DNA from: Planotetraspora mira
GTDB lineage: Bacteria > Actinomycetota > Actinomycetes > Streptosporangiales > Streptosporangiaceae
DNA: 64,000 nt
Assembly (NCBI RefSeq): GCF_016863275.1
Contig: NZ_BOOO01000009.1
Span: forward strand, 186,001-250,000
Direction of reading: 5' to 3'
Shown: positions 6,936 through 54,083 of the stretch, one piece after another
Layout: each line of letters opens with the position of its first letter
Numbering within the stretch: the first letter of the stretch is position 1
Position numbers and translations under genes: made by a program
Notes under the pieces: generated by a model
The model's database searches: none
The model's input: the letters and a program-made list of their open reading frames with translations, nothing else
Told to the model about the DNA's origin: nothing

Positions 6936-9146
6936 GTGCACGGCGCTCAGCGATCCACAGCGGTCCGTCACCTGTTCTTCATCGCGGCCGCGCTCGTCGC
7001 GCTGCTGGCCGCGTTGGGAGCCGGGGTGACCGCCGCCCTGCCCGCCTCCGCGTCGTCCTCCGGCTCTCCCACGGGCCGCGTGGTCCTGATCGGAGTCCCC
7101 GGCCTGCGGTGGGACGACCTCGACTCGGCGCGCACGCCCAACCTGTGGGCCCTCGCGGCGAAGGGCGGCGTGGCGTCGCTCTCCACGAGAACGGTTCCTC
7201 CGGAGGGCCTGCCGGTGACCTGCCCGGCGGGCGGCTGGCTCACGGTGTCGGCAGGCCAGCGGGCGGGAACGGGTGGCGACTCGTGCACGCCTCTTCCCGC
7301 CCCCGTCGCGGCGCCGGACGGCTCGGCGACCGTTCCCGGCTGGGCCGGGCTGGTCGCGTTGCAGCGGGCGGGCTCATACAAGGCGGACATCGGCCTGCTC
7401 GGCCAGACGATCATCGGTGCGGGAGGACGTGTCGCCGCGATCGGGCCGGGGGCCGCTCTCGCGGCAGCCGACAAGTCCGGAAAGATCCAGAAATATGCTG
7501 CCAATCCGGGTGAGCTGCCGGATCTGACCCCGTACACCGTCGTGTTCGCGGAGGCGGGCGAGATCGCCCAGGCCTGGAACCAGGAGGGGGACGCCCGCCG
7601 GAGCGCGGCGGCCGCCGCCGATCGCACGGTCGGCTCGGTCCTCGCTCACGTGCCGGCCGGCTCGACGGTGCTCGTCGCGGGCCTGTCCGACTCCGGCGCC
7701 ACCGCCCATCTTCACGTGGCCATGGCCACCGGCCCCGCCGGGCCCGCGGGCTCTACGGGCTCTACGGCGGGGCTCGAGCCGTACGGAGCGGGGTGGCTGA
7801 CCGCGTCCTCCACCCGGCAGGACGCGCTGGTCACCCTCACCGACCTGACCGCGACCGTCACCCACGTCCTCGGGATCACCACCCCGGAGGGAGTCGTCGG
7901 CCGGCCGTGGCAACCGGACGGCACGGCGGACGGAACGGCGAAGGACTCCGTCGCCCGGCTCGCGGACGCCGATCTCGCCAGCCAGGTGCTCAAGCAGGTG
8001 CGGGAGCCGTTCTTCCTGGTCCTCGTGGTGGCGCAACTGCTCTTCTACGCGCTCGCCGCCGTCGTGATGCGACGGTACCGGCGGATGTTCGTGCCCGCCC
8101 AGATCGTCGCGGTGGTCAGCGCCGCGGTCCCGGTGTCGACCTTCCTGGCGCAACTCGTGCCGTGGTGGAGCCTGGCCCACCCGATGGCCGCGCTGTGCGG
8201 CACGATCCTGGTCATGGCCGGGGCGATCGCCGGGGTGGCCTTCGCCGGGCCGTGGCGGGGGCACGTACTCGGGCCGCTCACCGTGGTCGCAGGGGTGAGC
8301 TCGCTCGCCCTGCTCATCGACGTGATGACGGGGTCGAGACTCCAGGTGAACGCCGTGACGGGGTACGAGCCGGTGACGGGCGGCCGCTTCTACGGCTTCG
8401 GGAACATGGCCTTCGCCGTCTACTCGACCGGCACGATCCTGCTGCTGGCCGGGCTCAGTCAGGCTCTGCGGCGGTGGCGGGTCCCGGCGCTGGTCCTGTG
8501 CCTGGCCTACGGACTGCTGGCGATCGCCGCGGACGGCTGGCCGAACTGGGGGGCCGACTTCGGCGGCGTGCCGTCGTTCATCCTCGGGTTCGCCGTGTTC
8601 ATGTTGCTGGTCACCGGCCGGAGGGTGTCCGTCATCCGGCTGGCGGTGATCGGCGCGGGCGGAGTCCTGGCCGTGGGACTGATCGCCGTCGCCGACTGGA
8701 TGCGGCCGGCTGACCAGAGGACCCACCTCGGGACGTTCGTCCAGCAGGTCGTCGACGGCGAGGGCGCGTCGGTCGTCGGCCGCAAGCTCGGGGCGATGCT
8801 GCACACCCTGGGGAACCTGCCCCTGACCCTGCTCTCGCTGGTCGCCCTGGCCTTCCTGTTCCTTGTGCTCTCCCGGCCCTCGAAGTGGGGGGCGCCGGCG
8901 CTCAGTCAGGCGTACGGCCACGCCTCCGCGTTGCGGGCCGGTCTCCTCGGCACGCTCACCGCGGCCCTGGCCGGATTCCTCCTGAACGACTCCGGCGTCG
9001 CCATCCCGGCGATGGCCCTGACCGTGGCCGTCCCGCTCACGCTGGCCGCGTCCGTGCGCGCGCTCCAGCTCTCCACGCCCACCACGCCAGACCGATCGTC
9101 AGCGCAAGCAGACACCATGGCACGACCTGCGAACGGACCACGGTGA
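6936..9146 (+). CDS. Large membrane protein with an N-terminal alkaline-phosphatase-like ectodomain
   Basis: This protein has 736 residues from the GTG at 6936, which follows GAGGAG and fits a signal-anchor start (RHLFFIAAALVALLAALGAG). Residues about 50-360 form an extracytoplasmic domain starting VVLIGVPGLRWDDLDS. That opening resembles alkaline-phosphatase-superfamily proteins, but a full metal-ligand set is not obvious. About ten membrane segments follow. Similar actinobacterial proteins are annotated only as hypothetical membrane proteins. Genes for polyprenyl-dependent glycosyltransferases on both sides suggest an envelope role, which is inference. The end overlaps the convergent gene by 110 bp. 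An upstream methionine at 6804 would run through the tandem repeat and was not used. Confidence 0.7.
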   Translation: MHGAQRSTAVRHLFFIAAALVALLAALGAGVTAALPASASSSGSPTGRVVLIGVPGLRWDDLDSARTPNLWALAAKGGVASLSTRTVPPEGLPVTCPAGGWLTVSAGQRAGTGGDSCTPLPAPVAAPDGSATVPGWAGLVALQRAGSYKADIGLLGQTIIGAGGRVAAIGPGAALAAADKSGKIQKYAANPGELPDLTPYTVVFAEAGEIAQAWNQEGDARRSAAAAADRTVGSVLAHVPAGSTVLVAGLSDSGATAHLHVAMATGPAGPAGSTGSTAGLEPYGAGWLTASSTRQDALVTLTDLTATVTHVLGITTPEGVVGRPWQPDGTADGTAKDSVARLADADLASQVLKQVREPFFLVLVVAQLLFYALAAVVMRRYRRMFVPAQIVAVVSAAVPVSTFLAQLVPWWSLAHPMAALCGTILVMAGAIAGVAFAGPWRGHVLGPLTVVAGVSSLALLIDVMTGSRLQVNAVTGYEPVTGGRFYGFGNMAFAVYSTGTILLLAGLSQALRRWRVPALVLCLAYGLLAIAADGWPNWGADFGGVPSFILGFAVFMLLVTGRRVSVIRLAVIGAGGVLAVGLIAVADWMRPADQRTHLGTFVQQVVDGEGASVVGRKLGAMLHTLGNLPLTLLSLVALAFLFLVLSRPSKWGAPALSQAYGHASALRAGLLGTLTAALAGFLLNDSGVAIPAMALTVAVPLTLAASVRALQLSTPTTPDRSSAQADTMARPANGPR

Positions 9147-10422
9147 CCGGCCAGTCCAGGCCCTCGGGCTGACCCATCTGCCTCGCCGGCAGATATCCGA
9201 GGGACAACACGGCCAGCCGTACGACGAGGAAGCCGTCGAGCGCCGGGCAGACCACCATCGCGAGCAGGGCGAAGGCCAGCCCGTCGTACCACGGCAGCAC
9301 GTAGGGCGTGGCGAACAGCCAGGCCACGCAGAAGGCGAGAGCCACCCGTGGGGCGTCGAGCTCACCCTCCCGCCGGAAGGCCCTGACCAGCAGGAAGGCC
9401 AGGGCCGCGAGCAGGGCGTAGGAGCCGAGCTGGATCCACACCCGATAGGCGCCCGGACCGATGAGTGACTGGGCCGCGTGCTGGACGAGCTTCCAGGGCG
9501 TCGCCAGCGACAACGACTGACTGGCGTTGCGGACCTGGTCGAGCGAGTCGGGCCCCGCGAGCAGGTAGGCCACGAGCACGGTCAGCGTCGCCGATCCTGC
9601 GACGATCGCCAGCTTCCTCGGCGACCTCCGCAGCTCCCACGCGGGGCCTAAGGCGACGAGGCCGACCGTGACCTTCACCGCGATTCCGAGACCGAGCAGG
9701 ACGCCCTTGCCCCTACCGAGGACGAGGGCGGCGACCATGAAGACGATCGCCAGAGTGTCGAGGTGCATGCCCGCCGCGAGGTGATAGACGACCAGCGGGT
9801 TGACCGTCCACAGCAGAGCCGCGCGGCGTCGCCGTACGGGATCATGCCGGGTGAACCGGTGCAGGAGCAACGCGGTCGCGACGAACGCGGCGGCATTGGC
9901 GAGTTCCATGACGAACACCGTCAACCGGAGCGAGTCGCCGCCGATGAGGGAGGCGAGCGCCTGTACGGCTGTCGCGACCGGCCCGTAAACGCTGGGCGTG
10001 TTCCGCCACTCCTCGACCCACCGGATGACGGGATCGGCGGGCAGATCAGCAGGAACGGTCACATAGGGGTTGTGTCCGAGCGTGACCATGCGCCCGTATG
10101 CCGCGTAGTTGAGATGGTCGGCGGACCCCGACGGCGGCAGGAAGGCGAGGACGACGGCGACGAGGCAGCCGGCGAGCAGGAGCCAGCGCGCGTCGGGCAT
10201 CCGGTGAATGGAGCGCAGGCCCGCCGCCAGGCCGAGCGCGCCCAGGATGATGGCGGCTGCCGCCATGCCGATGACGAGACGGCCGTCGGGCATGACGTCG
10301 AGCGAGTAGGGCGGCTGCCACGGACGTCCCTGCAGCGGAGGCACCATCGCGGACGGCCCGAGCAAGCCGATCGTGATCGTCAGGAGAATCGACGCCGCCC
10401 CGGCCCCCAGCGCGACCCGCAC
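9037..10422 (-). CDS. Polytopic GT-C-type (MptA/B-like) mannosyltransferase
   Basis: About 461 residues with 11 to 13 hydrophobic segments. The luminal-loop signature SGSADHLNYAAYGRM with GHNPYVTVP, and later HLDTLAIVFMVAAL, resemble actinobacterial alpha-1,6-mannopyranosyltransferases and GT87 relatives. Function is assigned by family resemblance only. The start is uncertain. A GTG at 10422 is preceded by GGGAAGGGG. An in-frame ATG at 10446 and further codons to 10503 lie inside the 53-bp repeats of the next feature, and their translation is repeat sequence. The 3' end overlaps the convergent gene. Confidence 0.75.
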   Translation of the reverse strand: MRVALGAGAASILLTITIGLLGPSAMVPPLQGRPWQPPYSLDVMPDGRLVIGMAAAAIILGALGLAAGLRSIHRMPDARWLLLAGCLVAVVLAFLPPSGSADHLNYAAYGRMVTLGHNPYVTVPADLPADPVIRWVEEWRNTPSVYGPVATAVQALASLIGGDSLRLTVFVMELANAAAFVATALLLHRFTRHDPVRRRRAALLWTVNPLVVYHLAAGMHLDTLAIVFMVAALVLGRGKGVLLGLGIAVKVTVGLVALGPAWELRRSPRKLAIVAGSATLTVLVAYLLAGPDSLDQVRNASQSLSLATPWKLVQHAAQSLIGPGAYRVWIQLGSYALLAALAFLLVRAFRREGELDAPRVALAFCVAWLFATPYVLPWYDGLAFALLAMVVCPALDGFLVVRLAVLSLGYLPARQMGQPEGLDWPVTVVRSQVVPWCLLALTIGLAWWAWRAGARARTRPA

Positions 10423-10437
10423 CCCCACCCCTTCCCG

Positions 10438-10939
10438 CGTGATCATGCACAGGTTCCGGGATATGCCACCTGACCAGGCACTTCCCCCGGCGTGATCATG
10501 CACACATTCGGTGGCGGCATGCCTGACCAGGCATTCTTCTCGGCGTGATCATGCGCACATTCCTCTACAACCCCGCTGACCTGGCCCGATGGTATTCGTG
10601 ATCTGGCAATCGAAGATGCGAGCGATCAACGGGGCGCCCCGAGTGACGCGGGTCGGGATCCTCACGCGATCGCATGCGGCGTTTCCGCCGGCGAGGGTAA
10701 CACTAGGAGAACACGTGCATGATCACGACAGGCGTCCTGGCTGGTCGGCGCCGATACGCACGAATCCGTGCATGATCACGAACGGCATACGGCCTGATCG
10801 GAGCGGACGTCCACGAATCCGTGCATGATCACGACCGATGAAAGGGCAGGTCAGACATGCCAACACCGAAGGTGTGCATGATCACGCGCAGGGTTGTGGC
10901 ACTTCAGGGCACACTTTCTCGAACCTGTGCATGATCACG
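10438..10939. repeat. Inverted double array of 53-bp units, locus A
   Basis: Left-arm units start at 10438, 10491, 10544 and (degenerate) 10597. Each begins CGTGATCATGCAC or a variant and they are exactly 53 bp apart. Right-arm units run on the other strand, with motif ends at 10727, 10780, 10833, 10886 and 10939, again exactly 53 bp apart. Inside each unit a TTCGG-like block sits at positions 17-21 and a CTGACCTGC/CTGACCAGG block at positions 33-41. The bases between are variable. The centre (about 10610-10714) is poorly conserved. The left flank is pyrimidine-rich and the right flank purine-rich. The region holds no convincing gene. It fills the gap between two minus-strand genes. Confidence 0.95.
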
Positions 10940-10955: not shown

Positions 10956-11720
10956 TCAAGGGCGGGGGCGGAAGGCGTCCTTGCCTTGCTTGATGGCTTC
11001 CTTGCCATGCTTGATCGCCGGTTCACGGGCGGCCAGCGCGCGGCCGACGTCGCGGAACTGCTTCGCGCGGTGCATCTGGGCCCGCCAGTCGGTTCCCGTC
11101 GCCCGGTGGGCCATGTCGACCTCCACCTCGACCACGCGGAAGCCCTTGGTGAGCAGGTCGATGGTCATCCCGGTCTCGACACCGAATCCATGGGCGAGCG
11201 GCTGCGCGGCGTCGAACGCGGCCCGTGTCAGGCACCGCTGGCCGTTCAGCGGCTGGGCGGGCTCCCAGCCGGTCAGCCGTTTGATCCCGTCGCGGGCCAG
11301 CCGTACGACGATGCCGTGGCCCCCGAGCTTCACCCGGGTGGCGAAGACCGCGATGGTCATGTCGGCCGCACCGACCCGGACCGGCGTGATCAGCGCATGG
11401 GCCGCCGAAGCCGTCTCACCCAGGTCCGCGTCGAGGAAGAGCAGGTGCCGCGGAACATCCTCATCGAGGAGCTGTACGGCTTCCGCCCCGCTCTCCATCG
11501 CGGCGGCCTTGCCCTTGTTCCTGCTGTGCCGTACGACCCGGGCGCCGGCCGCCCTGGCCACCCGGCCGGTCTCGTCGGCCGAACCGTCGTCGACGACGAC
11601 CACGAGATCCACGCCGGGCAGCTTCAGGGCGGCGGTCACGGTGGCGCCGATCCGGTCGGCCTCGTCCTTGGCCGGGATGACGACCGCGGTGTCCGGCGTC
11701 GGCACCACCAGTTCACTCAT
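10956..11720 (-). CDS. Family 2 glycosyltransferase
   Basis: This 254-residue cytoplasmic GT-A enzyme has the family opening TAVVIPAKDEADRIGATV, the VVVVDDGSADET nucleotide-sugar site, the HLLFLDADLGE metal-binding DxD region and an acceptor region with NGQRCLTRAAF. It resembles dolichyl-phosphate-mannose/glucosyl-3-phosphoglycerate-type synthases. The specific sugar is not readable. The C terminus is Lys-rich with a small internal repeat (KHGKEAIKQGKDA). It lies 6 bp after the STAS gene, so the two are probably cotranscribed. The repeat array A begins 16 bp after its stop. Confidence 0.85.
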   Translation of the reverse strand: MSELVVPTPDTAVVIPAKDEADRIGATVTAALKLPGVDLVVVVDDGSADETGRVARAAGARVVRHSRNKGKAAAMESGAEAVQLLDEDVPRHLLFLDADLGETASAAHALITPVRVGAADMTIAVFATRVKLGGHGIVVRLARDGIKRLTGWEPAQPLNGQRCLTRAAFDAAQPLAHGFGVETGMTIDLLTKGFRVVEVEVDMAHRATGTDWRAQMHRAKQFRDVGRALAAREPAIKHGKEAIKQGKDAFRPRP

Positions 11721-12299: not shown

Positions 12300-12755
12300 A
12301 TGATGAACAGTGAACTTCCCGAGGATCATCAGCGGCGAACGCTCAGGGAGCGGCTTGAGGTCATCCAGGTGCGCACAGAGAAGGCGACGTCGTGGCGTGA
12401 CACGGCCGAACCGCTCCGCTCGCTGATCAATCGCGAGGGATATGTCCCGATCAGCGCGCGACTGGCCGGAGAGGATCTCGAGTTCCTCTCCGAGGCGCGC
12501 GATGAGCTGCTGAACTTCACGGAGCTGGGCATCCGGCTGCTGGATCTCCACCAACCCCGGGACGCCGGAGGGATCACGAGCGACGCCGCCAATCCGATCC
12601 TGCGGTGCAGAAGCTGTATGTGGCGGTGGCCCTGTCCCACGTTCCGCGCCATGGCCGAGGCGTTCACCTTCCGCGAGCCGGGCAGCCGCGGCTCGGAACG
12701 CGACAGCCATCCGGACACGGGTGCCGACGCCGGCCCAGGAGGAGATTCAGCCTGA
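12300..12755 (+). CDS. Hypothetical protein with a Cys-rich C-terminal motif
   Basis: This 151-residue protein was not recognised. The first 100 residues are polar and helical (TLRERLEVIQVRTEKATSWRD, LSEARDELLNFTELGIRLLDLH). A compact Cys/Trp segment follows, LRCRSCMWRWPCPTF, which could bind a metal or take part in redox chemistry. The tail is disordered. The ATG at 12300 is the first plausible start. It is divergent from the STAS gene and its last 9 bp overlap the convergent sensor kinase gene. Confidence 0.6.
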   Translation: MMNSELPEDHQRRTLRERLEVIQVRTEKATSWRDTAEPLRSLINREGYVPISARLAGEDLEFLSEARDELLNFTELGIRLLDLHQPRDAGGITSDAANPILRCRSCMWRWPCPTFRAMAEAFTFREPGSRGSERDSHPDTGADAGPGGDSA

Positions 12756-13865
12756 CAACGGCAACCTGATCTCGAAACGGCAACCGGGGCCCTCGTTGAC
12801 CACGCCGATCATGCCCTGGTGCGCCTCCACGATGCCGCGGGCGATGGCCAGCCCGAGCCCCGCCCCGCCGTACGGGCCGGGAGTGCGGGCGGCCTCGCCG
12901 CGGAACGCCACGTCGAACACCCGCGGCAGGTCGTCCTCGGGGATCCCCCCGCAGCAGTCGAGGACCGACAGGCTGACCGTGTCGCCCTCGGCGACCGCCC
13001 GCACGGAGACGGTTCCGTCCGCGGGAGTGTGGCGGATCGCGTTGACCACTAGATTCCGTACGGCACGGCTCAGCTCACCCGCGTCCGCGTCGACGGGCAG
13101 GACTGCGTCCGCCTCGCCGGACAGGCGGACGCGCTTGGCCCTCGCGAGAGGCTCCACACCCGCAAGGGCGTCGGCGACCAGGTCCGCCAGGCCGACCTTG
13201 CTACGGGAGAGCCGCAGCGTGCCCGCATGGATGCGGGACAGTTCGAAGAGGTCGTCGACCATGCCGGAAAGACGGTCGACCTCGAGCCTGATCTGCGTGT
13301 GGTAGCGCTTGACCGTGTCAGGGTCGTCGGCGACGCCGTCCTCCAGCGCCTCGGCCATGGCGCGCATCCCCGCGAGCGGTGTACGGAGATCATGGCTCAC
13401 CCAGGCGACCAGCTCACGCCGAGCGCTCTCGAGAGTCCGCTCGCGCTCCTGCCCCAGGCGCAGCCGCTCGTACGCCTGCTCCAGAGCCAGGCCGATGGTC
13501 TCGAGCTCGGCGGGCAGCGGACCCTCCGGAGGTACGAACCGGCCGGACGGCGAAACGTCGTCGAGCGCGGCGACCAGCCGTCTGCTCGCCAGCACCACCC
13601 ACCGCGCGTTGACGAGCGCGACGCCCAGTCCCACGAGGCCGCCGATGGCGACGACGGTGAGCACGATGTTCCTCGGCCGGCCCTCGATGATCATTGCCAG
13701 CGTGACCGCGACCACGCCGGCGAGCGTCGCCGCAACCGTAATCACCGCCACGACCGCGAGCATCACGCCGATCGAGTGACGACGGAGAACCCGCAGCAGG
13801 GCGAGCCCCAGACCTGCGATGACCAGGCCCAGTCCCGCGCTCACGGCCATGATCTGGAGGATCAT
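12747..13865 (-). CDS. Two-component sensor histidine kinase
   Basis: This 372-residue membrane kinase has three or four N-terminal membrane segments (about residues 1-100) with little extracytoplasmic sequence. A linker, the H-box VSHDLRTPLAGM with the phosphoacceptor His, and an HATPase domain follow. The HATPase has the N-box NLVVNAIRHTP, a G1 box DCCGGIPEDDLPRVFD and a G2 box GGAGLGLAIARGIVEAHQG. Its ATG overlaps the stop of the response-regulator gene in an ATGA, so the two are translationally coupled. The stimulus is unknown. The short sensor region suggests membrane sensing. Confidence 0.93.
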   Translation of the reverse strand: MILQIMAVSAGLGLVIAGLGLALLRVLRRHSIGVMLAVVAVITVAATLAGVVAVTLAMIIEGRPRNIVLTVVAIGGLVGLGVALVNARWVVLASRRLVAALDDVSPSGRFVPPEGPLPAELETIGLALEQAYERLRLGQERERTLESARRELVAWVSHDLRTPLAGMRAMAEALEDGVADDPDTVKRYHTQIRLEVDRLSGMVDDLFELSRIHAGTLRLSRSKVGLADLVADALAGVEPLARAKRVRLSGEADAVLPVDADAGELSRAVRNLVVNAIRHTPADGTVSVRAVAEGDTVSLSVLDCCGGIPEDDLPRVFDVAFRGEAARTPGPYGGAGLGLAIARGIVEAHQGMIGVVNEGPGCRFEIRLPLSG

Positions 13866-14560
13866 GTCAGCGGCTCGTATCGATAGCCGACCCCCCAGAC
13901 GGTGACGATACGCCGCGGGTCGGTCGGATCCGGTTCGATCTTCTCCCGGAGTCTGCGCACATGGACGGTCACCGTCGACGTGTCGCCGAAGGACCATCCC
14001 CAGACCTGGTCGAGGAGGGCCATGCGGCTGAACGCCTGGCGGGGATTGCGCAGCAGGTAGGCCAGCAGGTCGAACTCTCTGGCGGTCAGGACGATCTCCT
14101 CGCCGCCGACCGTCACCTCGTGCGCGCCCACGTCGACCACGAGATCGCCGTCGCGCAACACGCCGGTGCCGGTAGGCACCAGCGCGCCGCGGGCGCGCCG
14201 GAGCACCGACTGCACCCGGAGGGCGAGTTCCCGAGGGCTGAAGGGCTTGGTGACATAGTCGTCCGCCCCCGTCTCGAGGCCCACGACCCGGTCGATCTCC
14301 TCACCCAGCGCGGTCAGCATGATGACCGGCACCGGCCACCGCTCCCTGAGCTTCCTGCAGACCTGGAGCCCGTCCATCTTCGGCAACATCAGGTCGAGGA
14401 CGAGGAGGTCGGGCGGGTCGGCGAGCGCCCGCCGGAGCGCCTCGGCGCCGTCGCCCACGCATTCGACCTTGTGACCGTCGCGCTCCAGGTAACGGGCGAC
14501 GACCTCTGCCACGGTCGGGTCGTCGTCGACGACCAGGACACGTGCGGGATTTCCAGTCAT
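13862..14560 (-). CDS. Response regulator, OmpR/PhoB family
   Basis: This 232-residue regulator has a receiver domain (ARVLVVDDDPTVAEVV acidic pocket; phosphoacceptor Asp in LLVLDLMLPKMDG; Lys in DYVTKPFS) and a winged-helix DNA-binding domain (LTAREFDLLAYLLRNP, then TVTVHVRRLREKIEPDP). The start MTGNPARVL follows a GAGGAG site. The frame stays open upstream as far as 14782, but that stretch translates through repeat array B and is not protein-like. The operon runs away from array B, whose nearest unit is 118 bp upstream of the start. Confidence 0.95.
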   Translation of the reverse strand: MTGNPARVLVVDDDPTVAEVVARYLERDGHKVECVGDGAEALRRALADPPDLLVLDLMLPKMDGLQVCRKLRERWPVPVIMLTALGEEIDRVVGLETGADDYVTKPFSPRELALRVQSVLRRARGALVPTGTGVLRDGDLVVDVGAHEVTVGGEEIVLTAREFDLLAYLLRNPRQAFSRMALLDQVWGWSFGDTSTVTVHVRRLREKIEPDPTDPRRIVTVWGVGYRYEPLT

Positions 14561-14677: not shown

Positions 14678-15169
14678 CGTGATCATGCACACATTCGGCG
14701 GCGGGGCATCTGACCTGCACAACAACGTTCCGTGATCATGCACAAGTTCGGTCATGTAATACCTGACCTGCAACTTCACCATCCGTGATCATGCACACAT
14801 TCGGCCATGCCCCGTCCGACCTGCGCTTTCACTTATCGTGATCATGCGCAGACTCGCGTGGACACGCCACGACCTGGCCGTACACCCCTCGCGATCATGC
14901 ACGTGGAGCATGCGACCCGCACGGCCCTCTACGGCAGCGCCGCCATGCATGATCACGGAGGACGTACGGCCAGCTCAACGGCGCCTGGCACGAAGCTGTG
15001 CATGATCACGGATCACGAACACGCACGTCAAAGCCCATATCGGCGAACCTGTGCATGATCACGGCGCATGAAGGTGCAGGTCGGATGCCACATTGCCGAA
15101 TCTGCGCATGATCACCAACAAAGGGTGGGCAGGTCAGCGCAGGTGTTCACGAACCTGTGCATGATCACG
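14678..15169. repeat. Inverted double array of 53-bp units, locus B
   Basis: Left-arm units start at 14678, 14731, 14784, 14837 and 14890, exactly 53 bp apart, beginning CGTGATCATGCAC (CGCGATCATGCAC in the fifth). Right-arm units on the other strand have motif ends at 14957, 15010, 15063, 15116 and 15169, also exactly 53 bp apart. The inner units of the two arms overlap, giving an imperfect palindrome centred near 14924. Block two (ATTCGG, positions 16-21) and block three (CTGACCTGC, 33-41) recur in the outer units. The left flank is a C-rich pyrimidine tract and the right flank a purine tract with AAGGAAAAGGAAAGG. No credible gene lies within. The array occupies the divergent interval between the response regulator and a small membrane protein. 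Confidence 0.95.
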
Positions 15170-15328
15170 CCCAAGGAAAAGGAAAGGGGGGTGGATCATG
15201 ATTCACGTGAAACCCATGGGGCGGGAGTGATCGGCCAAGGGAACGGCCGTGCGTCACGGTTGAGACAAGGTGCCGGGTCTTCGTCGATCAACCTCGCGAC
15301 GGTGGGCGTCAGACCGTACCGTGGAGGC

Positions 15329-15496
15329 ATGGCCCGTACTGTGCTGACCGTCGTGGGCGTCATCCTGGCCCTCTGGCTGATCTTCGGATTCGTGATTCCC
15401 GCGGTGTTCGCGACGCTGAAGTTCCTTCTCGTCTTCGCGCTCATCGCCTTGGCGGTCGTCGCGGTGATCACCGTCGTCGGGAAGATGTCCCGCTAG
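15329..15496 (+). CDS. Small hydrophobic membrane protein
   Basis: This 55-residue protein is almost entirely two adjoining hydrophobic segments (about residues 3-25 and 28-48), with a basic end GKMSR. The ATG at 15329 follows GTGGAGG. It has no recognised family. The open frame upstream runs into repeat array B and is rejected as coding. A 159-bp gap separates it from the array. Confidence 0.65.
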   Translation: MARTVLTVVGVILALWLIFGFVIPAVFATLKFLLVFALIALAVVAVITVVGKMSR

Positions 15497-20306: not shown

Positions 20307-21597
20307 ACAGTCCGGCGACGAGGAAGGCGGCCAGCGCCGCGTTCATCCACGGCTGGTGGGAGAACCCGATGGCGGTGCGGACGTTCTCCCAGATCGTGTC
20401 CCACCAGCCGACCGTCGACGTCGCGGTGACGATCCAGTAGGCGCAGAAGCCGAGGATCCACGGCACCACCATGAGCCACCTCGACGGGGCGTCGGCCGCC
20501 GTGTTCCAGCGCGAGGCGCCCCCGAGGAGGAAGTAGTCGACGACGAGCACGGCGAACATCGGCACGAACACCGCGCCGATCACGCTCAGGAACGCGCCGT
20601 AGGAGTTCACGTCGACGAGAAGGGCGATCCCGGTCGTGAGCACGCCGATCGCCACCGAGATGACCCTGCGGTCCACGCGCGGCATGAGGTTCTGGAGCGA
20701 CACCGTCGTCGAGTACACGTTGGCGAACGACTGGTCCGCCTCCCGCAACACGAGGATGCCGAAGAAGAACGCGCCCAGCGGCGCGGCCACGAACGGGTCC
20801 CACACCTTGTCCGTGTCGTTCCCGACCAGGGCCAGCGCGGCGATGCCGAGCGCGAGGCAGGCGACCTGCGCGATCGTGTAGCCGCCCACCACTCCGGCGA
20901 AGGCCGTACGGCTCGACTTGGAGTGCCTGGCGTAGTCGGCGGCCATGGGCACCCAGGAGACCGACAGCGCGATCACGTAGTCGACCGCCGGCGCGAAGGC
21001 GTCCCATGAGCCCCCGGTGAGCGAAGGACCACGGCTGAACAGCGCCACGGTCAACCAGATCATCGAGACCACCACGCCGGCCGTGACGTAGCGCCGCAGC
21101 AGCCGGACCGCCCCCAGCGGCCAGATCGTGAGCGCGATCGTCACCAGCCCGGCCAGCGTCGCCCAGACCCCGTACGGCACGGCCGTGCCGAACACGGCCT
21201 GCGCGCCGGTGGCGATGACCCAGAGTTCGAACGCCCCCCAGCCGAGCATCTGCACGATGTTGAGCACGGTCGGGACGTAGGACAGGCGTGCGCCGAACAG
21301 GCCTCGAAGGAGCACCATCGAGGGCCGGCCCGTGCGAACGCCGGGGATCGCGGCCAGGCCGACCATCGCCGTGCCGATGAGGCTGCCGACGACGGCCGCC
21401 AGGACCGCGCCCGTGAAGGTCAGCGGCTTGCCGCCCAGCGGATCGAGGAGGAACAGCGCCCCGGAGAATCCCAGAAGGCTGACTCCGAGGTTGGCCCAGA
21501 AGGCGCCCTGGTCCAGCAGGCCGAGGGTCTTCGGAGCCTCTTCGTCGAGGGTCAGCGGCACTTCCGCGTGCTGCGGATCGACAAGGGCGGACGTCAT
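20236..21597 (-). CDS. cytX: NCS1-family permease, probable hydroxymethylpyrimidine transporter CytX
   Basis: This 453-residue permease has 12 membrane segments with the NCS1 pattern (QGAFWANLGVSLLGFSGALF; VSWVPMAADYARH; GAVFVPMFAVLVVDYFL). The family includes cytosine, purine and hydroxymethylpyrimidine carriers. A TPP riboswitch directly upstream points to uptake of the thiamine pyrimidine moiety (inference supported by regulation). The ribosome site GGGAG is the 3' end of the riboswitch, so control is probably at translation initiation. It overlaps the convergent EamA gene by 71 bp. Confidence 0.88.
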   Translation of the reverse strand: MTSALVDPQHAEVPLTLDEEAPKTLGLLDQGAFWANLGVSLLGFSGALFLLDPLGGKPLTFTGAVLAAVVGSLIGTAMVGLAAIPGVRTGRPSMVLLRGLFGARLSYVPTVLNIVQMLGWGAFELWVIATGAQAVFGTAVPYGVWATLAGLVTIALTIWPLGAVRLLRRYVTAGVVVSMIWLTVALFSRGPSLTGGSWDAFAPAVDYVIALSVSWVPMAADYARHSKSSRTAFAGVVGGYTIAQVACLALGIAALALVGNDTDKVWDPFVAAPLGAFFFGILVLREADQSFANVYSTTVSLQNLMPRVDRRVISVAIGVLTTGIALLVDVNSYGAFLSVIGAVFVPMFAVLVVDYFLLGGASRWNTAADAPSRWLMVVPWILGFCAYWIVTATSTVGWWDTIWENVRTAIGFSHQPWMNAALAAFLVAGLFTIALGRLSRRTSNVSPERLPNR

Positions 21598-21604
21598 CGC
21601 ACAC

Positions 21605-21700
21605 TCCCTACGCCGGCATTATCCGGACAGGTTCATGCGGTCGGCGGCACGCCTCGTGGAGGAGCCGCCCTCTCAGCCCGGTATCGCCCGAGCTCCCGCG
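21605..21700 (-). promoter_or_regulatory. TPP (thiamine pyrophosphate) riboswitch
   Basis: On the minus strand the conserved thi-box elements appear in order: GGGCTGAGAGGG (CUGAGA at 21671-21676), a P3 stem-loop, GACCGCATGAACCTG and TCCGGATAATGCCGGCGTAG, ending in GGGAG. The terminal GGGAG is also the ribosome-binding site of the permease gene, 8 bases before its ATG. Binding of TPP would hide it. Confidence 0.95.
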
Positions 21701-21755
21701 GTATTTAAATGTCGAACCGGATTATGACATCTGATCCCCGATTGTCCAAAGGTGC

Positions 21756-23947: not shown

Positions 23948-25429
23948 TCACTTGGTGATGGTGTCCTTCGGGATGGGCTTGTCCTCTGCGAGGGCGTCGA
24001 ACAGGCGCACGGCCTTGGCCGTGTCCCACTTCACGACGGCCGCGCCGTTGATCGTGGGCAGCGAGCCGATGGGCACGGCCGTGGTCACCGGACCGCCCTT
24101 CATCGCGAGGCCGACCGAGAGCAGGTTGAACAGGCCCGTGTCCGGGTCGACGGCGACCGAGTCGGCCGCGCTCAGCGCCAGCGGGACGGACGTGAACGGG
24201 TTGAGGAGCGTGCCGGGGCTCGCCGCCTTCTGCACGACCGCGGAGAAGAACTGGCGCTGCCGCTGGGTGCGGTCGAAGTCGGGGATGGCGCCGGTCTTAC
24301 GCGTCCGGACGAAGCCGAGCGCGGTCCCGCCGTCCATGTCCTGGCAACCCTTCTTCAGGTTGATCCCGGCCTTCTTGTCCTTGATGTTCTGCTTCACGCA
24401 GATGTTCACGCCGCCGACCGCGTCGACGATGCCGACGAACCCGCCGAAGCCGATCTCCATGTAGTGGTCGATCCGGATACCGGTGACCTGCTCCACGGTC
24501 CTGGTCAGCAGCTTCGGGCCGCCGTAGGCGTAGGCCGCGTTCAGCTTGTCGCTGCCGTGCCCGGCGATCGGCACGTACGAGTCTCGGGGCAGGCTCACGA
24601 GCGTCGGCTGGCCGCTGTCCGGAATGTGGAGCAACATCATGGTGTCGGTCCGCTTGCCCACGGCCTTGCCGGTGGCGAGCTTCTTCCGCTGCTCCGCCGA
24701 CAACCCCGCCCGGCTGTCCGAGCCGACGAGCAGCCAGTCCTCACCCGGGGTGGCCGCGGGTCTGCCGCTGTAGTCCGTGAACGCCTCGACCGTCTGCAGC
24801 TTGGAACCGATCCAGAAATATCCGCCTACAGCGGCGACGATCAGGACGACCAGCAGAACGGCGACGGACCGGAGCACGATCTTGCCGATGTTCCTGGGGC
24901 GCCTGACGCCCCCGGAACCGCCGCCGCCCGGCGACCCCGGCACGTCTCCGCCGGGTGGCCCACCACGCTGACCGCCGAGCGGGCGGACGGGCGCCTGGCC
25001 CGATCGCGGCTTGCCGTACACCTTGGAGGTGACCCGGGGGGTGGTGTTCCCCAAGTCGTCGCTCTCCGCGTTCGAGGCGGTCCCGCGAAAGGCCTCGGGG
25101 ACGCGGTGGGCGGGCTGCCCGGCGGACGTCCAGGCTTCGTCCGCGGGCTGTCGCGCCGCCGCCCACGGATCATCAGCGGACGGCGCGGGCTTCCGGGGGT
25201 CATTCGCGGTCGGTCCCGCCTGCCACGGATCGTCGGCGGGCCGCCCCGCCGGCCGGGGATCCGGCGCGGATCCCCCACGCGCCCACGGATCGTCCCGTCC
25301 CACCGGCCGGGGATCTTGAGGAGACCCGCCACGCGCCCACGGATCGTCGGCGGGCCGTCCCGCCGGTCTCGGACCGCCACCCCCGGGGCGGCGAAGCGCG
25401 CGAGTGGCGTCGTCGTCGTCCTCGGCCAC
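23948..25429 (-). CDS. LytR-CpsA-Psr (LCP) family cell-wall glycopolymer ligase
   Basis: This 493-residue protein has a long disordered cytoplasmic N terminus (1-175) rich in Pro and repeats of the type DDPWARGGS-DPRP. One membrane anchor follows (about 180-205, LRSVAVLLVVLIVAAVGGYFW). The extracytoplasmic LCP domain has LLVGSDSRAGL, TDTMMLLHI, LPRDSYVPI, DHYMEIGFGGFVGIVDAVGG and FVRTRKTGAIPDFDRTQRQR, carrying the Arg/Asp residues that bind polyprenyl pyrophosphate. It attaches teichoic-acid-like or arabinogalactan-like polymers to peptidoglycan. The repeated N-terminal tail is unusually long. Confidence 0.92.
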   Translation of the reverse strand: MAEDDDDATRALRRPGGGGPRPAGRPADDPWARGGSPQDPRPVGRDDPWARGGSAPDPRPAGRPADDPWQAGPTANDPRKPAPSADDPWAAARQPADEAWTSAGQPAHRVPEAFRGTASNAESDDLGNTTPRVTSKVYGKPRSGQAPVRPLGGQRGGPPGGDVPGSPGGGGSGGVRRPRNIGKIVLRSVAVLLVVLIVAAVGGYFWIGSKLQTVEAFTDYSGRPAATPGEDWLLVGSDSRAGLSAEQRKKLATGKAVGKRTDTMMLLHIPDSGQPTLVSLPRDSYVPIAGHGSDKLNAAYAYGGPKLLTRTVEQVTGIRIDHYMEIGFGGFVGIVDAVGGVNICVKQNIKDKKAGINLKKGCQDMDGGTALGFVRTRKTGAIPDFDRTQRQRQFFSAVVQKAASPGTLLNPFTSVPLALSAADSVAVDPDTGLFNLLSVGLAMKGGPVTTAVPIGSLPTINGAAVVKWDTAKAVRLFDALAEDKPIPKDTITK

Positions 25430-52856: not shown

Positions 52857-54083
52857 TTGGCTCTCCGCTCCAAGCGCGCACGTATCGTGCGTGCCGCCTC
52901 CACCATCACGGCGCTGGTCGTCGCCGCCGGCGTGACCATGGCCGGCTCGGCCAACGCGTATCCGTCCAGCTACGACCGCTGCCCGAAGGGCTACTTCTGC
53001 CTCTTCAGCGGCCTGGACGGCAAGGGCACCGTCTGGAAGTTCCGGACGGACCAGCACGATCTGGGCTTCGCCGGCAGGCACGCGACCTCATTCACCAACC
53101 GGACCGCGGGCTATGCCTGCCTGTTCGGCGGCAAGGACTACACCACTGAGGACGATCGCACCATCTTCAGCATGGACTCCTGGGGCTCCGGGGGCATGAA
53201 CATGACGAGCGAGGTCGCCCAGTGGCGCAACCACATGGGTTCGCTCAACCTCGCACCCACCTGGCACGAGTGCTCAAGCAGGGTGCAGTACGTCGACTGG
53301 ACCCGGCCGGCGAACGAACCGGACGGCACGCCGAAGCCGTTCGGCTCCTTCCTCGGCGACGGCCACAGCCAGATGCTGATGCGCTCCCCCCAGGGCCGCC
53401 TGTGGGTGCTTCCCGGCGACGGCAACACGCCGATCGACCTCGGCGAGCGGCTGAAGGGCATGACCACGCTGGTCAGGCATGGCGACTACAGCGGCGACGG
53501 CCGGGAGGACATCATCGCCCGCGACGCCAAGGGCGTGCTCTGGCTCTATCCCGGCAACGGCAAGAAGGCCCTGGGCGCCAGGAAGCTGATCGCCTACGGG
53601 TGGAACAAGATGAGCCTCATCTCGGCTGCCGGAGACCTCACAGGCGACACGAAGAACGACCTCGTGGCGCGCGACACCAAGGGCGACCTATGGCTCTACC
53701 CCGGCAACGGCAAGGGGGGCTTCGGCAAGCGGCAGCGGATCGGGCGCGGCTGGAACAACAAGACGGCCGTCGTCGGCATCGGAGACCTCACCGGTGACCA
53801 CAAGGACGACCTTGTGGCCCGCGACACCAAGGGCGACCTCTGGCTCTACCCGCGCACCGGCAAGGGCGTGTTCGCCGCCCGCCGCATCGTCGGCCACAGG
53901 TTCTCCAAGACCTGGCGCCTGTTCGCCATCGGAGACGTCAACGGCGACCGCAGGAACGACCTCTACACGTCGGGCAACAACGACCTGCGTCTCTACCTGG
54001 GCACCACCAAGGGCACCCTCAAGCAGAGCTCCGCCTGGGGGATCGTCAACAACGGCATCGAGCCCAGCGAAGTCGTCTTCTGA
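52857..54083 (+). CDS. Secreted peptidase-inhibitor-like (I36) and FG-GAP/VCBS repeat protein
   Basis: This protein of about 408 residues has a signal peptide (ALRSKRARIVRAASTITALV to AGSANA). A Cys-containing domain with CPKGYFCLFSGLDGKGTVW resembles the inhibitor I36 / crystallin-like fold. It is followed by at least four FG-GAP repeats of the type GDLTGDTKNDLVARDTKGDL, which bind Ca2+ in beta-propellers. The TTG at 52857 is preceded by GGGAATGGA. An in-frame ATG at 52830 lies inside the hairpin stem. It is exported; its target is unknown. Confidence 0.82.
   Translation: MALRSKRARIVRAASTITALVVAAGVTMAGSANAYPSSYDRCPKGYFCLFSGLDGKGTVWKFRTDQHDLGFAGRHATSFTNRTAGYACLFGGKDYTTEDDRTIFSMDSWGSGGMNMTSEVAQWRNHMGSLNLAPTWHECSSRVQYVDWTRPANEPDGTPKPFGSFLGDGHSQMLMRSPQGRLWVLPGDGNTPIDLGERLKGMTTLVRHGDYSGDGREDIIARDAKGVLWLYPGNGKKALGARKLIAYGWNKMSLISAAGDLTGDTKNDLVARDTKGDLWLYPGNGKGGFGKRQRIGRGWNNKTAVVGIGDLTGDHKDDLVARDTKGDLWLYPRTGKGVFAARRIVGHRFSKTWRLFAIGDVNGDRRNDLYTSGNNDLRLYLGTTKGTLKQSSAWGIVNNGIEPSEVVF

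What the first reader, a model, noticed from the sequence alone, without database searches (positions are those of the whole stretch)
14678..15169. Locus B: second inverted double array with the same architecture
Five left-arm and five right-arm units, all 53 bp apart, show the same consensus, the same flank polarity and near-equal length to locus A (492 against 502 bp). The 10-bp difference, about one helical turn, lies in the centre. Two independent copies with one design argue for selected function rather than chance.
Basis: seen in the sequence. Interest (0 to 1): 0.9.

Follow-up and report, generated by a model that had tools for sequence, protein, structure and literature searches.

The report
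Genome-wide inverted 53-bp protein-docking arrays
The spot is one of many ruler-spaced DNA arrays placed between genes in soil bacteria of the genus Planotetraspora and some relatives; their fixed letters are kept while the letters between them drift, and one part is spelled differently in different lineages, which points to an undescribed chromosome-wide protein-docking system.

Summary
Locus B is one of 39 array loci found in 1.65 Mb of its genome (217 units, none in a reversed control); 149 of 151 steps are exactly 53 bp. Each arm is B1-(L-B1)n: a 'post' CGTGATCATGCA alternating with a 'link' carrying TTCG and GACCTGC. In 105 of 109 arms from three species the inner end closes with an extra post; none of 109 opens with one. 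Arms lie between genes, often at gene 3' ends. Post positions 2-11 hardly change between orthologous units while spacers diverge by about a third; in another species two link positions differ in 13 of 13 units. Window-species arrays are mostly shared (17/18 and 11/12 loci), but 8 of 18 arrays of the more distant species lack a counterpart. Pairs of posts at 53 bp occur in four more genera with other link spellings. Best reading: docking arrays for a sequence-specific nucleoprotein complex. The post contains GATCWT, the motif of the nucleoid protein Gbn: a lead, not tested. Binder and role (boundary or nucleoid anchor) are inferred. Six paper searches aimed at such arrays found no description.

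The parts
14678..14889 (+). Locus B, left arm: four full post-plus-link units of 53 bp (14678, 14731, 14784, 14837)
14890..14901 (+). Locus B, left terminal post (CGCGATCATGCA, no link motifs after it)
14902..14945 (.). Locus B, centre between the two facing terminal posts (5' ends 67 bp apart)
14946..14957 (-). Locus B, right terminal post (CGTGATCATGCA on the minus strand)
14958..15169 (-). Locus B, right arm: four full units (5' ends 15010, 15063, 15116, 15169)
10438..10596 (+). Locus A, left arm: three full units (10438, 10491, 10544)
10597..10608 (+). Locus A, left terminal post, decayed (CGTGATCTGGCA)
10716..10727 (-). Locus A, right terminal post
10728..10939 (-). Locus A, right arm: four full units (5' ends 10780, 10833, 10886, 10939)
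15199..15214 (+). parS-like site TGATTCACGTGAAACC just outside locus B; its 14-bp core is present beside the array site in all five species searched
13862..14560 (-). Left neighbour of B: response regulator (Response_reg, Trans_reg_C)
12747..13865 (-). Partner histidine kinase (HisKA, HATPase_c)
15341..15496 (+). Right neighbour of B: short predicted gene (start approximate); no Pfam hit for the enclosing ORF
10956..11720 (-). Right neighbour of A: glycosyltransferase family 2; its 3' end lies about 17 bp from the array
9037..10446 (-). Left neighbour of A: GT87-like glycosyltransferase (predicted start overlaps the first unit by 9 bp; start uncertain)

Best explanation
Locus B is one member of a chromosome-wide set of docking arrays for a sequence-specific DNA-binding complex. 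Shown: each arm is B1-(L-B1)n on a 53-bp (five-turn) lattice, 22 of 39 loci with two arms facing inward; arrays sit between genes, often at 3' ends; post positions 2-11 are strongly conserved while spacers drift; the first part of the link differs between lineages. Inferred: the post is bound by a conserved GATCWT-reading protein (a Gbn-type nucleoid protein is the best named lead), the link by a second domain or partner whose specificity changes between lineages; because the motifs are about whole helical turns apart the proteins form a straight cooperative rod along each arm, and two inward arms make a symmetrical assembly that acts as a boundary between transcription units and/or a local anchor of the nucleoid. 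My confidence by step: selected protein-docking arrays about 0.85; boundary or nucleoid role about 0.4; Gbn family as post reader about 0.3. The figure below is for the statement as a whole (lowered from 0.45 after one search showed that many arrays of G001 have no counterpart in G000).
For: Genome-wide: 882 places against 4 for the reversed pattern; 217 matrix hits in 1.646 Mb, 0 in the reversed control at the threshold used (at a lower threshold 1 control hit in 0.85 Mb); steps of 53 bp in 149/151, 52 in 2/151. Post and link: extra inner post in 58/60 (G000), 26/27 (G001), 21/22 (G003) arms, outer extra post 0/109; link score -14.5 after terminal posts against +16.4 in full units; terminal posts conserved at positions 1-12 only. 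Placement: 130 of 8692 unit bases in predicted genes; of 61 arm outer ends 38 face a gene 3' end (8 supply its TGA stop, 21 more lie 10-27 bp away) and 23 a 5' end (19 of them at 49 bp or more); gene ends in CGTGA are 84/1433 overall against 8/38 here, p 0.001. Conservation: 47 orthologous pairs, positions 2-11 0-4%, spacers 31-36%. In-place shift: link positions 13 and 15 differ in 13/13 G000-G001 pairs with positions 1-11 unchanged (consensus; alignment); terminal posts of G001 do not carry the shift. Dialects: 9 genomes in 4 other genera hold 2-257 post pairs at 53 bp, reversed controls 0; g69 and g65 loci found by a single-site pattern show 53-bp steps independently of that search. GATCWT is the Gbn motif (PMC9239103); extra GATC at 22/23 in 29/205 own units, about 2.9 expected, but only 6/78 in G001 and 7/65 in G003.
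Against: No binding protein was identified and no Gbn sequence was available to test; Gbn is reported at single GATCWT sites throughout a Streptomyces genome, and the paper's text has no word beginning 'Streptosporang'. No expression, ChIP or Hi-C data. Retention is lopsided: own arrays are mostly found in the relatives (17/18, 11/12), but of 18 placed G001 arrays 8 have none opposite in G000, and 4 of 11 none in G003, so arrays have been gained or lost often. The class bias depends on the background: against junctions of 150 bp or more convergent 12/39 v 57/467 (p 0.001) and divergent 4/39 v 163/467 (p 0.0004); by intergenic bases p 0.03 and 0.005; against all 1313 junctions p 0.10 and 0.21. 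Phasing of the two arms is only suggestive (10.5 bp: p 0.014 in 22 centres of G000, six sharing one value; 0.81 in 7 of G001; 0.08 in 7 of G003). Convergent pairing of one-armed loci: 5/6 in G000, 3/8 in G001, counted. G002 has few intact sites (98 exact, others 308-677), and 63 of 68 genera of the family gave no hit with the pattern.
Confidence: 0.42

Rival explanations
1. A selfish interspersed repeat family (MITE- or REP-like) copied in trans by a transposase; gene-end placement reflects selection against disruptive insertions. (Raised from 0.2 to 0.25.)
For: Hundreds of copies, intergenic; 8 of 18 placed G001 arrays have no counterpart in G000; patchy occurrence across genera; unit copying within arrays, also between opposite arms (identity up to 0.96; mean 0.44 for same rank against 0.37 between arrays).
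Against: Own loci are mostly shared (17/18, 11/12); four occupied/empty alignments show no target duplication, and one empty site keeps a degenerate post-like stretch, so some empty sites may be losses (intergenic sequence diverged, so weak); seven stretches between or around close single arms hold ordinary-looking genes and one transposase-like fragment, judged by eye; posts conserved while spacers drift, not expected of dead copies; no match to locus B in phage or plasmid records.
Confidence: 0.25
2. Operators of one transcription factor regulating many genes.
For: Sequence-specific, cooperative-looking phased sites; two-component genes beside locus B.
Against: More arm ends face 3' than 5' gene ends (38 v 23), and those facing 5' ends lie 49 bp or more away in 19 of 23; no common function of neighbours was apparent in the genes looked at, not tested systematically.
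Confidence: 0.12
3. RNA elements: bidirectional terminators or processing hairpins formed by the inverted arms.
For: Placement at 3' ends; inverted arms can pair.
Against: 17 of 39 loci have one arm, and between tandem genes these point either way (7 with the outer end facing the upstream gene's 3' end, 4 the other way, counted); no pairing signal inside units, the strongest dependences being mainly between neighbouring letters; symmetry just inside the terminal posts no better than shuffled over 30 centres, p 0.33; no Rfam match at the arrays.
Confidence: 0.08
4. CRISPR arrays.
For: Regular repeats with about 33-bp variable stretches and one more post than links; a published table gives 3-64 'CRISPRs' for five Planotetraspora species (PMC11431748, passages seen), some of which may be these arrays (inference).
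Against: The 'spacers' hold a GACCTGC-like element at a fixed place, are alignable at orthologous loci, and arms of 2-6 units occur at 39 loci in 1.65 Mb, 22 of them as inverted pairs.
Confidence: 0.01
5. Recognition tags for DNA transfer, comparable to uptake sequences with species dialects.
For: Lineage-specific spellings fixed across the genome resemble DUS dialects of Neisseriaceae (PMC3630211, abstract read).
Against: Sites occur as phased arrays, with only 5 weak lone units among 217; I know of no natural competence in this group (recalled).
Confidence: 0.05

Closest known systems
Gbn (SCO1839), GATCWT-binding nucleoid protein of Streptomyces (PMC9239103; abstract, sections 5 and 18 and passages read)
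   Same: The core of the spellings read here, GATCAT or GATCTT, is GATCWT; the paper reports the family in several mycelial actinobacterial genera.
   Different: Gbn is reported at single sites throughout the genome; nothing I read there describes 53-bp lattices, links or inverted arms. Its presence in these genomes was not tested.
REP/BIME elements of enterobacteria (recalled)
   Same: Interspersed, intergenic, near 3' ends, inverted arrangement, protein-binding.
   Different: No palindromic 20-40 nt unit; here a 53-bp lattice of post and link, and lineage spellings.
MIRU of mycobacteria (recalled)
   Same: Intergenic repeats, about 53 bp in one class, can overlap gene ends.
   Different: MIRU are head-to-tail whole-unit repeats; here only about half of each unit is conserved, arms are often inverted pairs, and an extra post closes nearly every arm.
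DUS dialects in Neisseriaceae (PMC3630211, abstract read)
   Same: Genome-wide short sites whose spelling differs as a set between related species while a core is kept.
   Different: DUS are short sites for DNA uptake; here 53-bp phased arrays in actinobacteria.
CTCF site clusters of animals (recalled; analogy only)
   Same: Inward-pointing polar sites at boundaries between transcription units.
   Different: No evidence of loop extrusion; no homology claimed.

Membership tests
CRISPR array | Spacers unrelated to one another | tested here: not met
   GACCTGC-like element at positions 34-41 of the unit consensus
CRISPR array | Adjacent cas genes | not tested
   Pfam was run on ten ORFs around A and B only; no cas family among them
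REP/BIME | Palindromic unit able to form a hairpin | tested here: not met
   No intra-unit base-pair signal in 209 units; the post is not a palindrome
REP/BIME | Intergenic placement near 3' ends | tested here: met
   130 of 8692 unit bases in predicted genes; 38 of 61 arm ends face a 3' end
REP/BIME | Associated RAYT (TnpA-REP) transposase | not tested
   No search with that family was made
MIRU-type tandem repeat | Whole-unit similarity between copies | tested here: not met
   Spacer identity 0.42 between adjacent units, 0.37 between arrays
MITE or other transposable element | Target-site duplication at occupied against empty sites | tested here: inconclusive
   Four occupied/empty alignments, none seen, but the intergenic sequence is diverged
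MITE or other transposable element | Presence/absence at orthologous sites | tested here: met
   8 of 18 placed G001 arrays have none opposite in G000
MITE or other transposable element | Autonomous partner with the same ends | tested here: inconclusive
   Genes in seven stretches between or around close single arms read by eye: one transposase-like fragment, no full element; most of the genome not seen
Gbn binding sites | GATCWT core | tested here: met
   read in printed matches, whose pattern required it; motif from PMC9239103
Gbn binding sites | Bound by Gbn; gbn gene present | not testable with these tools
   No Gbn sequence or family model at hand
Known structured RNA | Match to an Rfam family | tested here: not met
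   Window hits at gathering scores are a TPP riboswitch and a tRNA only

The most novel reading that the evidence does not exclude
A bacterial boundary-element system: a conserved post-reading protein and a fast-evolving link-reading partner build phased nucleoprotein rods at some two hundred intergenic places per chromosome (extrapolated from 39 in 1.65 of 9.03 Mb), and the link code has been rewritten in place across the set in one lineage (13 of 13 orthologous units here), so that related species carry different chromosome 'dialects'.
Probability: 0.3. Interest if true: 0.93.

Novelty: new variant of a known kind. Interest (0 to 1): 0.8.

Why it matters
How bacteria insulate neighbouring genes and fold chromosomes with sequence-specific sites is largely open. 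Here is a natural system with hundreds of ruler-spaced sites, a readable grammar (post, link, terminal post), related genomes with many or few arrays, and two species whose link code differs at the same loci. That makes the binder findable by affinity capture and its code testable by swapping dialects. It also shows a set of DNA sites changing together in place, a textbook problem of binding-site coevolution, in a tractable group.

Tried and rejected
Intra-unit RNA or cruciform pairing: mutual information on 209 units gives mainly neighbour dependence and no pairing signal. Palindromic centre between terminal posts: single cases are striking, but over 30 centres the symmetry is 3.1 against 2.97 in shuffles, p 0.33. 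Helical phasing of arms: suggestive only. Convergent pairing of one-armed loci: 5/6 in G000, 3/8 in G001, not claimed. Viral, phage or plasmid origin: four viral contigs had one weak matrix match position each, no array; locus B has no match in the phage and plasmid records. Searches with the Planotetraspora spelling first suggested a genus-only element; the matrix scan of stray hits overturned that and led to the dialects. Class-wide: 5 of 246 genomes hit (G000 and G111 among them); G712 (5 pairs, GTGATCATGCAGATC-TGGG type, no GACCTG element) may be related, G761 (1 pair) and G134 (2 pairs, different build) are doubtful; the four other members of G712's family have none. Paper searches aimed at such arrays gave no description; listings are capped (in one search, 15 of 60 papers shown, titles look unrelated). 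Searches were about Gbn and DUS. A first count of 'loci kept' in one direction only was corrected.

Full report
What was claimed and what is there. Locus B holds ten copies of CGTGATCATGCA or close variants, five per strand, all in 53-bp steps, over 492 bp. Locus A is the same design with a shorter left arm and one decayed post.

It is a genome-wide set. The own genome (9.03 Mb, 100 contigs, window = C9:186001-250000) has 882 places of GTGATCATGCRCA with up to one mismatch, against 4 for the reversed pattern. Named records with such arrays belong to Planotetraspora kaengkrachanensis, P. silvatica and P. phitsanulokensis. In 1.646 Mb of the own genome (C1 and C5 whole, most of C2 and C4, 244 of 338 kb of C9, 60 of 86 kb of C3) a 41-position matrix finds 217 units and none in the reversed sequence; the matrix was trained on units from C1, part of C4 and the window, so those parts are not independent. 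At a lower threshold the reversed control gave 1 hit in 0.85 Mb. Steps within arms are 53 bp in 149 of 151 cases and 52 in two; there are 61 arms of two or more units, 22 two-armed and 17 one-armed loci, and 5 lone weak units; the stretches of C3 and C5 hold none.

Grammar. The unit reads CGTGATCATGCRCR-NN-TTCG-N13-YGACCTGC-N12. In 58 of 60 arms one further post (at least 8 of 10 core letters) lies 53 bp inside the last full unit, without link motifs after it (link score -14.5 against +16.4); on the outer side none of 60 has one, and 106 bp inside only 2 of 60. Two other species agree: 26/27 and 21/22 inner, 0/27 and 0/22 outer. So an arm is B1-(L-B1)n. Terminal posts are conserved at positions 1-12 only, which separates the post CGTGATCATGCA from the link that starts with CANNTTCG. 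Post, TTCG and GACCTGC lie about one and two helical turns apart and the period is about five turns, so the contacts could fall on one face (inference). Mean unit scores fall from the outer to the inner end (49.1, 47.4, 44.7, 41.1). The distance between facing terminal posts is 36 bp in 6 of 21 two-armed loci with both terminal posts in G000, otherwise 25 to 165.

Placement. 130 of 8692 unit bases overlap genes predicted by my own codon-usage gene finder. Of 61 arm outer ends, 38 face a gene 3' end and 23 a 5' end. In 8 of the 38 the TGA inside CGTGATCA is, by coordinates, the gene's stop (84 of 1433 predicted genes end in CGTGA; p 0.001); 21 more lie 10-27 bp from the stop; two overlap a predicted gene end more deeply and seven lie farther off. 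Of the 23 facing a 5' end, 19 lie 49 bp or more away. Convergent junctions: 12/39, divergent 4/39. Against junctions of 150 bp or more (57 and 163 of 467) this gives p 0.001 and 0.0004 (two of the 39 junctions are shorter than 150 bp, and arrays themselves lengthen junctions); by share of intergenic bases p 0.03 and 0.005; against all 1313 junctions p 0.10 and 0.21. So the 3'-end preference is clear, the class bias moderate. Locus B is one of the four divergent cases.

Evolution. Loci A and B exist in all five species of the genus searched; in one (G002) most of B is deleted. Of 18 own loci with orthologous flanks in the fetched part of G003, 17 carry an array; of 12 in G001, 11. The other way round the picture is lopsided: of 16 placed G003 arrays 15 have one opposite in G000, but of 18 placed G001 arrays only 10 do, and 7 of 11 against G003. 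Four occupied/empty alignments show the intergenic stretch replaced between stop codon and next gene, without a visible target duplication; one empty site keeps a degenerate post-like stretch. So arrays are long-lived but gained or lost between the two lineages. In 47 orthologous unit pairs (G000-G003) positions 4-8, 10 and 11 never differ, positions 2, 3 and 9 differ in 2-4%, positions 1 and 12 in 19% and 26%, and the spacers in 31-36%. Units were found with a block matrix, which inflates block conservation. Within arrays, units are sometimes copied: spacer identity 0.42 for adjacent units, 0.44 for opposite arms at the same rank, 0.37 between arrays.

A set-wide change in place. In G001 the link begins GAAGTTCG: in 72 units position 13 is G in 92%, 15 is A in 90%, 16 is G in 82%; in the window's genome position 13 is C in 97% of 146. 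In 13 orthologous unit pairs between G000 and G001 positions 13 and 15 differ in 13 of 13, positions 1-11 in none, the spacers in 27-39%; the same 13 of 13 holds for 13 G003-G001 pairs. At locus A neighbouring spacer letters can still be aligned. Terminal posts of G001 show no preference for the new letters. The G001 units had first been found with the other species' matrix, which disfavours the change.

Dialects beyond the genus. A matrix scan of stray single-site hits showed 53-bp steps in other genera; loci of g69 and g65 were read. A family-wide search for two posts GTGATCWTGYA exactly 53 bp apart found 14 of 341 genomes, in 5 of 68 genera, all reversed controls zero: the five Planotetraspora (82-660), G105 of genus g65 (257), five of the fifteen genomes of g69 (2-135), both genomes of g80 (22 and 121), G130 of g72 (2). 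Post and spacing are required by that pattern; what varies is read from the printed matches (a capped list): g65 GTGATCATGCACA..TTCCCG, g69 GTGATCTTGTAGTTTGTCGCA, g80 GTGATCTTGCAGAAACTCGCA, g72 GTGATCTTGCAGGAATTCCCG, with GACCTG-like letters at the same place in most rows. Spellings outside the pattern would have been missed. Pairs in G712 of another family (5) may be related but lack the GACCTG element.

What binds. Nothing in the tools names the protein. The literature gives one precise lead: Gbn (SCO1839), a 73-residue actinobacterial nucleoid protein, binds GATCWT (PMC9239103; abstract, sections 5 and 18 and passages read). The spellings read here keep that core, and an extra GATC appears at positions 22 or 23 in 29 of 205 own units against about 2.9 expected, less clearly in G001 (6 of 78) and G003 (7 of 65). 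This is a resemblance, not a test: six letters, no Gbn sequence at hand, and Gbn is described at single sites.

How it most likely works (inferred). A post reader and a link reader, or one protein with both domains, lay down a straight cooperative rod along each arm; two inward-facing rods form a symmetrical assembly between transcription units. Placement at gene ends suits a boundary, a roadblock against read-through, or a nucleoid anchor better than an operator. G002, with 98 exact sites and 224 with up to one mismatch, against 308-677 and 612-792 in the other four, may be losing the system; the ratio of the two counts is also high in G003 (612 to 308), so this is not firm.

Known or new. 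Paper searches aimed at such arrays turned up no description; papers outside the held library are not covered. A 2024 comparison of Planotetraspora genomes lists 4, 15, 3, 18 and 64 'CRISPRs' for five species (PMC11431748, passages seen); I suspect that some are such arrays, an inference. As a DNA element it is a new variant of interspersed intergenic repeats; its post-and-link grammar and spellings match no family I tested.

A neighbour worth noting. Just outside locus B lies TGATTCACGTGAAACC, two letters off the parS consensus (recalled); such a match is expected 0.05 times in the window, 5 of 100 shuffles had one. Its core GATTCACGTGAAAC is kept beside the array site in all five species, whereas four perfect copies cluster at G000:C10:38877-41394; in G004 both lie on one contig, 162-165 kb apart.

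Noticed in passing
15199-15214: parS-like site TGATTCACGTGAAACC beside locus B; 14-bp core kept in all five species, 162-165 kb from the cluster of perfect parS-like sites on the G004 contig.
   Followed up: partly
21587-21709: TPP riboswitch on the minus strand, Rfam RF00059.
   Followed up: no
53481-53963: Tandem repeats of about 150 bp, perhaps repeated protein domains in a long ORF.
   Followed up: no
25241-25348: Two tandem copies of a 54-bp unit.
   Followed up: no
G002 (same genus): Far fewer intact array sites than its four relatives and a mostly deleted locus B: a possible natural loss of the binder.
   Followed up: partly
G000:C4:253-426 kb, C9:42-190 kb, C3:1-60 kb, C5: Long stretches without any array, so the arrays may be unevenly spread along the chromosome.
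   Followed up: no
L150 and L175 (genus g56): Facing single posts (GTGATCATGCA, GTGATCTTGCA) without clear 53-bp neighbours; perhaps remnants or a simpler form.
   Followed up: no
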